Shown here one piece after another: positions 388 through 4,022 of a stretch of 64,000 nucleotides of DNA. Source of the DNA: an uncultured bacterium. Its GTDB lineage: Bacteria; Bacteroidota; Rhodothermia; Rhodothermales; UBA10348. The notes under the pieces were generated by a model. The model was given only the letters and a program-made list of their open reading frames with translations. It was not told the DNA's origin and searched no databases. Location: positions 1 through 64,000 of the forward strand of contig CALIKL010000033.1 of NCBI GenBank assembly GCA_938018055.1, given 5' to 3'. The number at the start of each line of letters is the position of its first letter. Position 1 is the first letter of the stretch. Position numbers and translations under genes: made by a program.

Positions 388-786
388 TCAGTCTTTCTCA
401 GCGGGATTGTCTTCGGAATGTGGTCGATTCCTGTTCATGGTCGGAGCTCGATCAGGAGCTCGAAATCCGATCATGGCATGAGATGCTGAGCGACGAAGTT
501 TGCCCTTGATCTCGGTAAGGATTCTCTTGTGTAGCTGATTGCCATGGTGAGTGACTGACAGGTTCACCCGTCTACTATGAGATGCGTTCAAGTGGCTGCG
601 AGCGGCGCGCCGTGCGCGAACTCCTCCTACAGCCTCGAAGCACTCCAGCAGATCATCTCGTCCCACGATTTTGCTCAGTGCTTCCGCCCCATGATCTTGA
701 TAGAGACGCGCTACCCATTTTCCTCCATCCTCGTGGTATCGAGCAATCTCAGAACGTATTGCTTCGAGTTCAGACTTATCCTTCAA
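388..786 (-). CDS. small hypothetical protein downstream of gpII-like initiator
   Basis: This 132-residue protein is not assigned to a family. Its first ~65 residues are charged and probably helical (KWVARLYQDHGAEALSKIVG), followed by a basic, Arg/His-rich C-terminal half. Its start lies inside the last codons of the upstream initiator gene (11-bp overlap, different frame), so the two are very likely co-transcribed and translationally coupled. In filamentous phages the initiator gpII carries a C-terminal module also made separately as gpX; this ORF could be a detached counterpart, but similarity is only suggestive. It could equally be an unrelated accessory protein. The basic tail would suit nucleic-acid binding. 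Confidence 0.5.
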   Translation of the reverse strand: MKDKSELEAIRSEIARYHEDGGKWVARLYQDHGAEALSKIVGRDDLLECFEAVGGVRARRAARSHLNASHSRRVNLSVTHHGNQLHKRILTEIKGKLRRSASHAMIGFRAPDRAPTMNRNRPHSEDNPAEKD

Positions 787-1561
787 GTATTCCCTCCCAC
801 GTCTTCAGGTGCCACGTCAGTGCCGCGCCGTGTAGCTCATCGATCCTATTGAGATTGTCGACCTCAAGCTTGTTTCGAACTGCAGCCGGGGTGAGAACGG
901 CGGATTCAAACCGAACCGTGTTCGAGTCCGGCATGATCAGGTTGTCGGCAGCAGCTCCGTACCGGTGTCTGAGTTCATAGTATTTCCCATAGGCCTTGAT
1001 CGCGGAGCGACCGTTGAACCACGAAATACCGTTGTTTCGGCGTCTCTTCCTCATTCGAGACGGTGGAGGACAATCTTCGAGAACCTCCCAGTATGCTTCC
1101 AAACAGTTGTCGACGGGGATATCCGAACAGACTTCCAGTCTTCTCACAACAGCGCTGGACAGGTCGGATTCGATCCCAATCTGAGGAAGTTGCCGCCCCA
1201 ACTCTGCGACGGCCCTTCGGACAAGAGCCGGATCAGCCGCGGGGTAGTTTATCAGGTTCTCAAACCTTGAAGCATTAAAGCCTAACAGACAGTGTCTGAT
1301 GCCGGGCCGTGGCACGATAATGTTCAAGTACCACCAGTTCGACTTGTAGTGAGCTCCATATCCAAACACTGGGCCTGTCGACGTGCGAAACAGCAGGGTC
1401 GGAATCTTGTGGCTGCTCCTGTGATGGATGGACAGCATATGATCATGCCGGACAGTCCAGTCGGTGAGCCTCAAATCGATCTTGTCAAATCCGGTCGACG
1501 ACGGTATTAACGTCGAAGTAGTTGTTGATATAGAATCGGGGCGAGTGGTGGCAACCGTCAT
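776..1561 (-). CDS. replication initiator resembling filamentous phage gpII / RstA
   Basis: The 261-residue product has the order of blocks I recall for the filamentous phage gpII/CTX RstA family, which nicks double-stranded phage DNA to start rolling-circle replication: FDKIDLRL (25-32), a beta block around WWYLNIIV (76-83), VVRRLEVCSDI (138-148), KAYGKYYELRH (189-199, candidate active-site tyrosines) and NTVRFE (214-219). f1 gpII has corresponding blocks near its start and at ISRIDATFSA, VAYLKHVELQH and LVRFEAR. The protein is shorter than gpII (about 410 residues) and ends where the gpX module would begin. It overlaps the upstream HTH gene by 4 bp (ATGA), so the genes form one operon. A plasmid-type initiator of the same superfamily is the main alternative. 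Confidence 0.6.
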   Translation of the reverse strand: MTVATTRPDSISTTTSTLIPSSTGFDKIDLRLTDWTVRHDHMLSIHHRSSHKIPTLLFRTSTGPVFGYGAHYKSNWWYLNIIVPRPGIRHCLLGFNASRFENLINYPAADPALVRRAVAELGRQLPQIGIESDLSSAVVRRLEVCSDIPVDNCLEAYWEVLEDCPPPSRMRKRRRNNGISWFNGRSAIKAYGKYYELRHRYGAAADNLIMPDSNTVRFESAVLTPAAVRNKLEVDNLNRIDELHGAALTWHLKTWEGILEG

Positions 1562-1863
1562 GCAGCATTTCTCGGCTTAGTTGCTACCACGTGCCCCGCT
1601 TTGATCCAGTCGATCAGGTCGGTGTATTTGAACAGCACCCGATTGCCGTTCATGTAGAAGTCGATCTGGCCGGTTTTCCTGAGGTGGTCAAGTTGCCGAA
1701 CGCTCCTTCCCGTGATTCCTGCGGCCTCCTTGTTGGTGACGAACTCCTTGTTTCGGAGTTGATCTACCATGAGCGGTACCAGTTCTTGGACCGCGGTGCT
1801 GATCTCGGTTCTGACCAGCTTTGTCATTTCGTCGGTGGTGACCCACCTGAGTTCTCCAACCAT
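1558..1863 (-). CDS. small HTH (excisionase/MerR-type) DNA-binding protein
   Basis: This 101-residue protein has a helical N-terminal stretch (about 1-38) followed by a winged helix-turn-helix of the HTH_17/excisionase type at about 41-90: NKEAAGITGRSVRQLDHLRK, then the wing strand NRVLFKYTDLIDWI. Such proteins act as excisionases, recombination directionality factors or accessory replication/transcription factors of phages and integrative elements. It is the first gene of the leftward operon, its stop overlaps the initiator start by 4 bp, and its promoter faces the XRE repressor gene across a region with inverted repeats. The operon layout supports a phage or plasmid function rather than a housekeeping one. 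Partner recombinase is not in the window. Confidence 0.7.
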   Translation of the reverse strand: MVGELRWVTTDEMTKLVRTEISTAVQELVPLMVDQLRNKEFVTNKEAAGITGRSVRQLDHLRKTGQIDFYMNGNRVLFKYTDLIDWIKAGHVVATKPRNAA

Positions 1864-1884
1864 CCTGTTGTGTTGTGATGAAAC

Positions 1885-1939
1885 TTGTCGTATTTACCGG
1901 CGTGCCACATGTGAGCAACACGACATAACAATACGACAA
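1885..1939. promoter_or_regulatory. divergent promoter region with 10-bp inverted-repeat operators
   Basis: TTGTCGTATT (1885-1894) and its exact inverse AATACGACAA (1930-1939) lie 35 bp apart between the leftward HTH/initiator operon and the rightward XRE gene. A third, imperfect copy (TGTCGTGTTG on the minus strand, near 1916-1926) is next to the right arm. This is the expected place and form for binding sites of the divergently encoded XRE repressor, as in the rstR-rstA control region of CTX-type phages. The repeat is seen; its binding protein is inferred. Confidence 0.6.
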
Positions 1940-2009: not shown

Positions 2010-2579
2010 ATGACGGTATTTGGATCCGATCCTCAGATAGGCGACCGAATGCGAGTGGCCCGAAAAAAGGCGGGATTGAGTCAGAGAGAAGTGGCAGACA
2101 AACTCAGGTGGTCACTTCGAACCTATTCTCGCTATGAAAACAACCATTTCAGATTGCCTCTGAACCGGATTCCGATCGTGGCAGATGCTTTGGGAACTGA
2201 CGAAGATTGGTTGAGATGGGGAGTGGGCAACCAAGAAGTTGAAGTCGACTCTGAGCTGGTTTCGATAATGAACGGTGTTCACGCAGTCCGTGCGGCGTTG
2301 AATGATGAATGGTCCATGGGCGAGTGGAAAGCAGATATGGATTCTGCCCTGCATCGATCCGGACTGATCAATCGAATGACCGAGTCGGAGAAAGAGCTGT
2401 CACCAGCGGAATCATCACCTACGGTATTCTTAAACGTTCGCATTGATGCCATGAAGCGTGACGAGCTTCATGAGACCGCAGCACTGCTCGGAGTTACGAT
2501 TCAAGAAGCTGTGGCTCTATCAATTGCTACCCTTACAGAATTGCTGAGGGGTGGTCAAGCTGACGAGGCAGCTCCATAG
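2010..2579 (+). CDS. XRE-family HTH transcriptional regulator
   Basis: The protein has 189 residues. Residues 10-70 form a Cro/CI-type helix-turn-helix (IGDRMRVARKKAGLSQREVA, then LRTYSRYENN, ending in DEDWLRWG). The C-terminal region (about 140-180) is a helical segment without a recognised peptidase motif, so LexA-like self-cleavage is not indicated. It diverges from the phage-like operon and is probably its repressor, binding the inverted repeats at 1885-1939. It is also the first gene of a tight three-gene operon: the ATPase gene starts 5 bp after its stop codon and the DUF4325 gene follows. That suggests the same regulator also controls the cargo module, perhaps autogenously. Confidence 0.85.
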   Translation: MTVFGSDPQIGDRMRVARKKAGLSQREVADKLRWSLRTYSRYENNHFRLPLNRIPIVADALGTDEDWLRWGVGNQEVEVDSELVSIMNGVHAVRAALNDEWSMGEWKADMDSALHRSGLINRMTESEKELSPAESSPTVFLNVRIDAMKRDELHETAALLGVTIQEAVALSIATLTELLRGGQADEAAP

Positions 2580-2584
2580 TACCC

Positions 2585-3538
2585 GTGACTACAACAATAA
2601 AACTTCCGTATTTGCTGAGCCAAAGGCAGTTGGAGACCATCGTGCCACTCACGACTTTGGACAATCAAACGACCGAGGTGGAGTTCGACATATCGGGGCT
2701 CAGATTTATAACCCCAGTTGGTGTAGTCCTGTGGATTTGTTGGATTCGTTTCTTCGAGAAGATCGGGGTGACATGGACGATCGTTGGCGTGGACGAGCAA
2801 GCAGATATTTATCGATACCTGCAGCGGATTGATTTCTTCAGCACGATTGGAGTGGAAACTGTTGAGTCATTTGTTCGAAGGCCAAGTAGGCGACGATTCA
2901 TTCCAATCGAAAATGTTGGAAGGGCATCACAGGCCAATGTCAATCAACTTGCGTCGCGTGCTGCAGAATGCATTAGCCCAGATCCTATTGAAGGTTTGGA
3001 AGGCGACTACCCGGGATATCTCAACTGCTTGAAGTTTGGAATTTCAGAACTCGTCAATAACGTTTCCCAACATGCATCTGGCATGGGGTGCATAATGGCT
3101 CAATACTTTCCCAGATTCGATTCAGTCACGGTTGCGGTTGCTGATATTGGGATGGGAATACGAGAGAGCTTTCACATGGTCAGATATGAGCAAGAGCATG
3201 AAGTGTCGCACTTAAAATCTCTTCAGCAAGCATTGCTGCCGCTCATGTCTTCCAAGAAGGGAACTCTCGGTTGGGGCGAATCTGTCAATCAGGGAGTAGG
3301 CTTGACACTGTTGGCTGAAATTGCTGAAGCTTGCGGTGGAGAATTTTGCATTTTATCCGGTGATGGGATGGTGCACAACAGAGTGGGTACGCAACTTGAC
3401 GGTATGTTTTTTGGTACGTTAGTTGCATACAGGTTCAATAGAGACCGGATGCACGACTTTGCGGCTGTGCTCGAAGTCGCGAAGCAAAATTCCGGTCTTG
3501 ATGACAGCAGCGGAGCTGTAAACAAATTTTTTGGGTGA
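2585..3538 (+). CDS. STAS-like + GHKL (HATPase) fusion protein
   Basis: The 317-residue protein begins at a GTG. Residues about 1-90 resemble a STAS fold (VEFDISGLRF, then a hydrophobic helix and ADIYRYLQRIDFF), but the usual DSSG phosphorylation loop is TPVG (43-46). Residues about 145-285 form a GHKL ATP-binding domain with an N box (ISELVNNVSQHA, 153-164), a G1 box (DIGMG, 187-191) and a G2 box (GVGL, 237-240), as in anti-sigma kinases such as SpoIIAB/RsbW. No His-kinase dimerisation domain or membrane segment is seen, so it is cytosolic. It sits between an XRE regulator and a DUF4325 gene with almost no spacing. A partner-switching kinase is the simplest role; a defence or phage-regulatory role is conjecture. 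Confidence 0.75.
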   Translation: MTTTIKLPYLLSQRQLETIVPLTTLDNQTTEVEFDISGLRFITPVGVVLWICWIRFFEKIGVTWTIVGVDEQADIYRYLQRIDFFSTIGVETVESFVRRPSRRRFIPIENVGRASQANVNQLASRAAECISPDPIEGLEGDYPGYLNCLKFGISELVNNVSQHASGMGCIMAQYFPRFDSVTVAVADIGMGIRESFHMVRYEQEHEVSHLKSLQQALLPLMSSKKGTLGWGESVNQGVGLTLLAEIAEACGGEFCILSGDGMVHNRVGTQLDGMFFGTLVAYRFNRDRMHDFAAVLEVAKQNSGLDDSSGAVNKFFG

Positions 3539-3542
3539 AGTC

Positions 3543-3836
3543 ATGACATACAGCATGCAGATCGAAAGCACTTTCGGCAGCTACTGCGCCTCGCCAAGCC
3601 CAGTAGGTCAGATGCTGTCAGGGAGTCTTCCCAGCGTGACCCTGAAATTGGACCGTGTAGAATTTGATTTCAAAGGGGTTCACGGAATCAGTAGCTCGTT
3701 CGCAAATGCTCTGATTTCCCACATCTACGGGCTGGATGAAGGAGTAACTCTTGGTCGAGCTCGATTCGTTAATTGCACCCCGGCCGTTCGTTCAATTCTC
3801 AGTACAGCTCTGAGCCAAGCAATGAAGTATGCGTAG
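3543..3836 (+). CDS. STAS-like protein of the DUF4325 family
   Basis: The 97-residue protein is nearly all one domain. The signature FDFKGVHGISSSFANAL (41-57) matches DUF4325, a STAS-like family in which the I-S-S-S-F loop stands where STAS anti-sigma-factor antagonists carry their phosphorylated serine. The ATG at 3543 follows the ATPase stop by 4 bp; an in-frame TTG at 3531 would overlap the upstream gene and is a possible alternative start. Adjacency to a GHKL kinase-like protein suggests it is the partner or substrate of that kinase, in the manner of SpoIIAA with SpoIIAB. No sigma factor lies nearby, so the final output is unknown. Confidence 0.75.
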   Translation: MTYSMQIESTFGSYCASPSPVGQMLSGSLPSVTLKLDRVEFDFKGVHGISSSFANALISHIYGLDEGVTLGRARFVNCTPAVRSILSTALSQAMKYA

Positions 3837-3894
3837 GTCATTGGATTCTGGAAGCAGGTGAAATATCCTGTAGACACTGCAATTGTTTTACCCA

Positions 3895-3946
3895 TGTTGT
3901 ACCTCTACAACAAAGCCTCTTGCAGTGCAATGACTTACAAGAGGCT
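3895..3946. repeat. two adjacent hairpins at the tRNA 3' flank
   Basis: Two inverted repeats lie directly beside the tRNA 3' end: TGTTGTA/TACAACA (3895-3901 and 3906-3912, 4-nt loop) and AGCCTCTTG/CAAGAGGCT (3914-3922 and 3938-3946, 15-nt loop). On the minus strand they follow the tRNA and could terminate its transcript. They also mark the junction with the accessory island and could belong to an attachment site. Confidence 0.55.
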
Positions 3947-3949
3947 GTG

Positions 3950-4022
3950 TGGGCCCGGCAGGATTTGAACCTGCGACCTACCGATTATGAGTCGGCAGCT
4001 CTAACCACTGAGCTACGGGCCC
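3950..4022 (-). tRNA. tRNA with CAU anticodon, probably tRNA-Ile2 (elongator Met possible)
   Basis: Read on the minus strand, the 73-nt gene folds as a normal cloverleaf: 7-bp acceptor starting GGGCCCG, D arm GCTC/GAGC, anticodon arm GCCGA-CTCATAA-TCGGT, T arm GCAGG-TTCAAAT-CCTGC, discriminator A. CCA is not encoded. The anticodon is CAU. C4-G69 and C5-G68 pairs, and general likeness to E. coli ileX in the D and anticodon arms, favour tRNA-Ile2, whose C34 is modified to lysidine by TilS and which reads AUA. Elongator tRNA-Met cannot be excluded. The accessory island abuts its 3' end, a usual integration site. Confidence 0.92.

What the first reader, a model, noticed from the sequence alone, without database searches (positions are those of the whole stretch)
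2010..3836. XRE - STAS/GHKL-ATPase - DUF4325 operon as a candidate undescribed system
Three genes with gaps of 5 and 4 bp join a phage-type repressor to a STAS+GHKL fusion and a STAS-like DUF4325 protein, within an island beside a tRNA. Partner-switching modules (kinase + STAS antagonist) normally steer sigma factors (established), but none is here. The association with a phage-like control region suggests the pair links host signalling to element control or to defence (inference). I am not aware of a described system with this composition.
Basis: partly seen in the sequence, partly recalled or inferred. Interest (0 to 1): 0.75.

Follow-up and report, generated by a model that had tools for sequence, protein, structure and literature searches.

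The report
Toxin-less kinase–STAS pair on mobile island
Next to a tRNA gene this bacterium carries a small mobile element whose swappable cargo slot holds a kinase and its small protein target, related to a DNA-damage-sensing immune switch published in June 2026 (CapK/CapS and VapKSC) but lacking the toxin; the repressor gene in front belongs to the element and is not part of the switch.

Summary
The three genes are real and placed as reported. The composite 'XRE–STAS/GHKL–DUF4325 system' does not hold. (1) The GHKL–DUF4325 pair belongs to the CapK/CapS–VapK/VapS kinase–STAS family (PMC13373217, 2026): a family profile of the small protein hits the solved VapS structure 9z7o (E 1.6e-10), and GHKL and DUF4325 genes are neighbours in 36 of 40 loci examined. 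(2) The XRE gene is backbone of a tRNA-Met-integrated element. A sister element at the same tRNA in another genus keeps XRE, HTH, 261-aa and small genes in order, but carries a PADLOC defence candidate (PDC-M02A/B) where the window carries the pair. I found the element's other end (attachment copy plus tyrosine integrase) on another contig. (3) The window pair is not VapKSC: no PIN toxin follows, the STAS protein lacks the C-terminal tail VapS needs to block VapC, and the kinase falls outside the PIN-linked clade. Similar tail-less, toxin-less pairs occur in Streptococcus prophages, a Pseudomonas plasmid and other genomes. Best reading: defence-slot cargo, an ssDNA/damage-responsive phospho-switch whose output partner is not encoded beside it. 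New variant of a known kind.

The parts
2585..3538 (+). STAS-GHKL kinase, CapK/VapK-like (317 aa, GTG start); cargo gene 1
   Evidence: PHROG_3364 2.2e-25; family alignment with invariant N-box and G-boxes; predicted fold matches SpoIIAB and STAS domains; followed by DUF4325 as in 36 of 40 loci
3543..3836 (+). DUF4325 STAS-like protein, VapS-like but tail-less (97 aa from ATG 3543; longest ORF from TTG 3531); cargo gene 2. Middle Ser of the SSSF motif (Ser51 from ATG 3543) aligns with VapS Ser48
   Evidence: Pfam DUF4325 27.2 bits; family profile hits PDB 9z7o VapS 1.6e-10; motif alignment; only 44 residues after the motif against 58-67 in PIN-linked relatives
2010..2579 (+). XRE repressor-like protein of the element backbone (189 aa, N-terminal HTH_3, C-terminal part perhaps ribbon-helix-helix-like)
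   Evidence: HTH_3 2.9e-12; full-length homologue (34% identity) at the same place in the sister element G412:C175 without the kinase-STAS pair; absent from 395 other genomes of the phylum
1866..1938 (.). Cluster of operator-like half-sites (CAAYACGACA) between the divergent HTH and XRE genes
   Evidence: perfect 10-bp inverted repeat TTGTCGTATT/AATACGACAA plus further copies; 4 of the 9 matches (up to 1 mismatch) in the 64-kb window fall in these 73 bp, where chance expects about 0.01
1558..1863 (-). Excisionase-type HTH protein (101 aa), element backbone, divergent from XRE
   Evidence: HTH_17 2.3e-6, TIGR01764 4e-5, PHROG_66 excisionase 1.8e-5; conserved order in L033, L034, L143
776..1561 (-). 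Conserved 261-aa element protein; initiator-like by inspection only, no family match
   Evidence: 55% identical in G412, about 30% in G085 and G183; no significant Pfam or PHROG family
388..786 (-). Small conserved element protein (132 aa)
   Evidence: same position after the 261-aa gene in L033, L034 and L143
24..117 (-). Remnant, cut by the contig start, of a further backbone ORF (122 aa in G412)
   Evidence: 71.6% nucleotide identity to G412:C175 2879-2972, inside ORF 2641-3009(-)
3881..3946 (.). Element end beside the attachment site, with GTTGTACC-type repeats
   Evidence: conserved beside the same tRNA-Met in L022, L027, L028, L030 and G412, absent from L029 and L031, where the neighbouring sequence differs
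3948..3968 (.). attR core in the 3' end of tRNA-Met; identical 21-bp copy at G000:C91:30672-30692 next to a tyrosine integrase
   Evidence: exact 21-bp match; integrase at C91 30813-32033 with Phage_integrase 9.6e-17
3949..4022 (-). tRNA-Met (CAT), integration target
   Evidence: ARAGORN

Best explanation
The locus is the tRNA-proximal end of a small integrative element. Its backbone is a tyrosine integrase, two conserved unnamed proteins, an excisionase-type HTH and a divergent XRE repressor with an operator cluster. Between XRE and the attachment site lies an exchangeable cargo slot, filled here by a two-gene kinase-STAS switch of the CapK/VapK-CapS/VapS family. [quoted passage not shown] inferred from VapS Ser48 and CapS Ser54), which changes the STAS protein's binding partner. 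Unlike VapKSC no toxin is encoded beside it and the STAS protein lacks the antitoxin tail; unlike CapS it has no DNA-binding domain. The output must therefore go through a protein not encoded in the pair, most likely a host protein. Placed 5 bp behind the element's repressor gene, the pair is probably expressed in the quiescent state, like lysogenic-conversion genes, and most likely serves defence or superinfection exclusion. Shown: genes, element, slot exchange, family membership, missing toxin and tail. Inferred: kinase activity, signal, co-expression with XRE, partner, defence role.
For: Family: DUF4325 profile to PDB 9z7o VapS 1.6e-10; catalytic GHKL boxes intact; fold matches SpoIIAB and STAS; kinase and STAS genes adjacent in 36 of 40 loci, fused in others. 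Slot exchange: G412 has the same tRNA-Met, the same order small - 261-aa - HTH - XRE and different cargo, which PADLOC names PDC-M02A (1e-40) and PDC-M02B (2.7e-85); the more distant element in G085 carries a ThsB-type TIR plus an 8xMP membrane protein. Element ends: 21-bp attachment copy plus integrase on C91, flanked by the genes that adjoin tRNA-Met in G242. Not VapKSC: no PIN gene downstream, tail length 44 against 58-67 in 23 PIN-linked STAS proteins, kinase outside the PIN clade (98/94 support). Mobile occurrence of toxin-less pairs: Streptococcus prophages between lysin and integrase, Bacteroides phage, Pseudomonas plasmid. RM MTase/HsdS and PIN genes recur as neighbours of the family. 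Mechanism model: PMC13373217.
Against: The window kinase is only 20-25% identical to its relatives and its place in the tree is weak (89/86 with the plasmid protein L014, both long branches). The STAS model alone gives no significant structure match (best STAS hit prob 0.85, E 0.3). The ssDNA-contact aromatic of CapK (W68) / VapK (F54) could not be mapped with certainty. No effector is visible, so the defence role rests on slot and kin. The element is split over two contigs with an unsequenced gap, so a partner in the gap cannot be excluded.
Confidence: 0.7

Rival explanations
1. The pair is a damage-responsive controller of the element itself: the STAS protein binds the XRE repressor, and phosphorylation by the ssDNA-activated kinase changes that contact, de-repressing the divergent HTH - 261-aa operon, so that the element excises or replicates when the host's DNA is damaged.
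For: XRE lies 5 bp upstream in the same operon; no protease domain was found in XRE; clustered half-sites lie in the divergent promoter; CapK/CapS is precisely such a damage-to-transcription switch and uses a DNA-binding domain that the window STAS protein lacks but XRE could supply (PMC13373217).
Against: The sister element keeps XRE with 34% full-length identity, including its C-terminal part, without any kinase-STAS pair; no other surveyed locus has XRE directly upstream.
Confidence: 0.15
2. Degenerate VapKSC: a toxin-antitoxin operon that has lost its VapC toxin and the antitoxin tail and now decays, or serves as an anti-toxin decoy against a host VapC.
For: Same family; PIN-linked relatives are common.
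Against: Both ORFs and all catalytic boxes are intact; the kinase lies outside the PIN-linked clade; tail-less toxin-less pairs recur in unrelated phages and genomes; without the tail, which VapS needs to block VapC (PMC13373217), a decoy role is unlikely.
Confidence: 0.12
3. XRE-GHKL-DUF4325 is a dedicated, conserved three-gene system, for example a CapK whose N-terminal HTH became a separate gene.
For: CapK is HTH-STAS-GHKL (PMC13373217) and the window has HTH, STAS-GHKL and STAS in that order with 5 and 4 bp gaps.
Against: XRE stays without the pair in G412 and the pair occurs without XRE in all other surveyed loci; XRE is a 189-aa protein with its own C-terminal part.
Confidence: 0.05
4. 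A conventional partner-switching regulator of a host sigma factor that was picked up by the element.
For: Fold similarity to SpoIIAB and STAS domains.
Against: No sigma factor in the operon, nor among the 25 most frequent neighbour families; family kin act on repressors or toxins (PMC13373217).
Confidence: 0.04

Closest known systems
VapKSC (VapK-VapS-VapC; PMC13373217, VapS structure 9z7o)
   Same: STAS-GHKL kinase followed by a small STAS protein with the Ser aligned to VapS Ser48; found on mobile elements and near defence genes; the family profile matches VapS.
   Different: No VapC/PIN gene; the STAS protein lacks the C-terminal antitoxin tail; the kinase is outside the PIN-linked clade; an element XRE gene precedes it.
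CapK + CapS (PMC13373217)
   Same: Kinase-STAS pair; proposed damage/ssDNA input; linked to defence genes.
   Different: CapK carries an N-terminal HTH and CapS a wHTH; here the kinase has no HTH and the STAS protein no DNA-binding domain; no immune operon follows.
SpoIIAB/SpoIIAA and RsbW/RsbV partner switches
   Same: GHKL kinase fold and STAS substrate with a serine in the equivalent loop.
   Different: No sigma factor; the kinase carries its own STAS domain; mobile location.
PDC-M02 (PADLOC candidate system)
   Same: Occupies the same cargo slot, between XRE and tRNA-Met, in the sister element of G412.
   Different: Unrelated proteins (DUF4365 plus a 384-aa protein).
Prophage lysogenic-conversion genes placed behind or beside the repressor (lambda rexAB type; own knowledge)
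   Same: Accessory genes directly behind the repressor gene of an integrated element.
   Different: Different proteins; the element here has no structural genes in the part that was seen.

Membership tests
CapK/VapK-CapS/VapS kinase-STAS family | STAS + GHKL kinase with intact N-box and G-boxes | tested here: met
CapK/VapK-CapS/VapS kinase-STAS family | Kinase gene directly followed by a STAS-domain gene | tested here: met
CapK/VapK-CapS/VapS kinase-STAS family | Conserved Ser/Thr at the VapS Ser48 position | tested here: met
   SSSFAN motif
CapK/VapK-CapS/VapS kinase-STAS family | ssDNA-contact aromatic (CapK W68 / VapK F54) | tested here: inconclusive
   F41 lies in an aromatic (F/W) column of the STAS domain, but the published residue could not be mapped because those sequences were not held
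CapK/VapK-CapS/VapS kinase-STAS family | ssDNA-stimulated phosphorylation of the STAS protein | not testable with these tools
   needs biochemistry
VapKSC | PIN/VapC gene directly downstream | tested here: not met
   the tRNA and attachment site follow; 23 other STAS proteins belong to PIN-linked loci
VapKSC | STAS protein with a C-terminal tail that blocks VapC | tested here: not met
   44 residues after the motif Phe against 58-67 in PIN-linked proteins
VapKSC | Kinase within the PIN-linked clade | tested here: not met
   98/94-supported clade of 19 PIN-linked kinases excludes the window; the window row is a long branch
CapK + CapS | Kinase with N-terminal HTH and STAS protein with C-terminal wHTH | tested here: not met
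   kinase and STAS proteins too short; no HTH hit in either
CapK + CapS | Immune operon directly downstream | tested here: not met
   tRNA-Met and core genes follow
tRNA-integrated element of the G412 type | Attachment repeat in the tRNA 3' end and a tyrosine integrase | tested here: met
tRNA-integrated element of the G412 type | Backbone order small - 261-aa - HTH - XRE | tested here: met

The most novel reading that the evidence does not exclude
The toxin-less, tail-less kinase-STAS pair has been wired to the XRE repressor that precedes it, making an ssDNA-sensing phosphorylation switch for induction of a mobile element: an alternative to RecA/LexA-type prophage induction built from an immune regulator.
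Probability: 0.13. Interest if true: 0.7.

Novelty: new variant of a known kind. Interest (0 to 1): 0.42.

Why it matters
CapK/CapS and VapKSC were described only in June 2026, each with an obvious output (a repressor's DNA-binding domain or a toxin). The window shows a branch with neither, carried as cargo on a mobile element. It suggests that the kinase–STAS pair is a plug-in sensor whose outputs are still incompletely known, and it marks a cargo slot (between XRE and tRNA-Met in this element family) where other defence genes can be looked for.

Tried and rejected
Scans of genome contigs and viral contigs with the window kinase found no close relative, and the family alignment was too divergent for pattern scans. 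XRE against plasmids: no match. A sigma-factor partner: not seen among the most frequent neighbour families. The PADLOC DrmA hit of the kinase (3e-13, residues 29-268 against positions 31-249 of a 1750-position model) was not taken as DISARM membership: the protein is 317 aa and no other DISARM gene is adjacent. The replication-initiator identity of the 261-aa protein could not be confirmed. The STAS protein's own structure search was not significant. No overlap between the ends of C91 and C33, so the gap stays open.

Full report
Observation. The window begins at the first base of contig C33 of a draft genome (G000, 93 contigs, 85% complete). The three ORFs exist as described: XRE 2010-2579, STAS-GHKL 2585-3538 and DUF4325 to 3836, with gaps of 5 and 4 bp if DUF4325 starts at ATG 3543. 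Pfam supports HTH_3 and DUF4325; the GHKL domain is weak in Pfam (0.015) but the protein matches PHROG_3364 at 2e-25. A tRNA-Met lies at 3949-4022 on the other strand.

The element. A 21-bp copy of the tRNA 3' end (window 3948-3968) lies at C91:30672-30692, 120 bp before a tyrosine integrase of 406 aa (Phage_integrase 9.6e-17). C91 ends 172 bp after that gene. The genes to the left of this attachment copy are the ones that adjoin tRNA-Met in the relative G242. So the island runs from C91:30672 to window 3968, with an unsequenced gap between the contigs. HTH (1558-1863), a 261-aa protein (776-1561) and a 132-aa protein (388-786) recur in that order in G085, G183 and G412. The elements in G085 and G183 also lie beside a tRNA and have an integrase at the far end, and in G085 an exact 25-bp repeat flanks the element. 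I could not confirm that the 261-aa protein is a replication initiator: no library names it.

XRE belongs to the element. In G412, a different genus of the same family, a sister element sits at the same tRNA-Met. It has the small gene, the 261-aa gene (55% identity), HTH, and a divergent XRE with 34% identity along its length, including the C-terminal part. Instead of the kinase and STAS genes it has two other genes, named PDC-M02A and PDC-M02B by PADLOC at 1e-40 and 2.7e-85. This XRE type was otherwise not found in 395 genomes of the phylum. In the window, four half-sites of the type CAAYACGACA lie within 73 bp between the divergent HTH and XRE genes, out of nine matches in 64 kb, which is what a repressor-controlled divergent promoter would show. 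None of the other loci with the kinase has an XRE directly upstream; the detection used a local profile and could miss distant HTH proteins.

The pair. I collected 55 loci from genomes of the phylum, phages and plasmids. The kinase gene is directly followed by a DUF4325 gene in 36 of 40 loci with a free-standing DUF4325 gene, window included; in five further loci the two domains are one protein. The kinase alignment keeps the N-box and both G-boxes. The predicted structure of the window kinase (mean pLDDT 74.6) matches SpoIIAB (prob 0.99) and STAS domains (prob 1.0) in separate parts. The DUF4325 profile matches PDB entry 9z7o, Escherichia VapS, at 1.6e-10.

Known system. PMC13373217 (EMBO J, June 2026) describes CapK (HTH-STAS-GHKL) and CapS (STAS-wHTH): ssDNA activates CapK, which phosphorylates CapS Ser54 and releases it from DNA. 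It also describes VapKSC, where VapS blocks a VapC toxin through its C-terminal tail and a Ser48 phosphomimic breaks the complex; the operon protects against a phage. The loci here with a PIN gene after DUF4325 are evidently VapKSC, and several are embedded in type I, IIG or III RM loci.

What differs in the window. No PIN gene follows. The STAS protein has 44 residues after the motif phenylalanine; 23 PIN-linked STAS proteins have 58-67, and 14 of 16 proteins without a third gene, window included, have 44-53. The PIN-linked kinases form one clade (98/94) that excludes the window; kinases followed by a small membrane protein form another (100/99); the window falls outside both, weakly with a Pseudomonas plasmid protein. 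Its STAS motif, SSSFAN, resembles other toxin-less proteins (SSSFxN in L017, L038, L039, L043, L112). Such pairs are mobile cargo elsewhere: between lysin and integrase in Streptococcus prophages, in a Bacteroides phage (its STAS protein has a longer tail), and on a Pseudomonas plasmid.

Mechanism. By family knowledge the kinase should be switched on by ssDNA and should phosphorylate Ser51 of the STAS protein (numbered from ATG 3543). With neither toxin, tail nor DNA-binding domain, the output partner is missing from the pair. I consider a host target and a defence or exclusion role most likely, because the same slot carries a PADLOC defence candidate in G412 and a more distant element carries TIR plus 8xMP genes. 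The alternative, that XRE is the partner and the pair is an induction switch, is attractive but is weakened by XRE standing alone in G412.

Verdict. A real, correctly read locus; the three-gene system is not supported as a unit; the pair is a toxin-less, tail-less variant of a family described in 2026, carried in the exchangeable slot of a tRNA-Met element.

Noticed in passing
L104:7375-9328, L106:6875-8893, L109:6944-8896, L113:2229-4048: Kinase-STAS pairs whose third gene is a small membrane protein instead of PIN; the kinases form a 100/99 clade, three of the membrane proteins are related (about 1e-7 to 1e-8 in a five-sequence comparison), and L104's matches a PADLOC 2TM effector (3.7e-6). 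Possibly an undescribed kinase-STAS-membrane-effector branch.
   Followed up: partly
L121:7038-8324, L122:8047-9159, L123:7241-8257, L124:7191-8231, L126:7281-8297: Kinase and DUF4325 fused in one protein; four of the five have GQAF/GQGF/GRAF instead of Ser/Thr at the phospho-site position, so they may work differently.
   Followed up: no
L012:7944-8963, L013:4757-5788, L016:4998-6002, L035:8326-9351, L040:7921-8916: A supported clade of related kinases with no DUF4325 gene beside them, on small plasmids, a phage and chromosomes.
   Followed up: no
L033:9536-11875: A tRNA-Leu element in G085 carries a ThsB-type TIR protein next to an 8xMP/DUF7701 membrane protein, a candidate TIR-membrane defence pair.
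   Followed up: partly
L034:11278-13121: The tRNA-Met element in G183 carries two or three related acetyltransferase-like genes in tandem plus an EamA-like transporter as cargo (by inspection).
   Followed up: no
L039:6317-9457: A toxin-less pair lies between two copies of a gene that looks like an SOS-response-associated peptidase (SRAP/YedK) by inspection.
   Followed up: no
window 2585-3538: The PADLOC DrmA model PDLC02567 (1750 positions) matches the kinase at 3.2e-13 through its N-terminal 250 positions; that model may include a fused GHKL region and could mislabel such kinases.
   Followed up: no
G000:C5:5254-6656 (L056): A second tyrosine integrase of the same type next to a tRNA-like sequence in the same genome, probably another element.
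   Followed up: no
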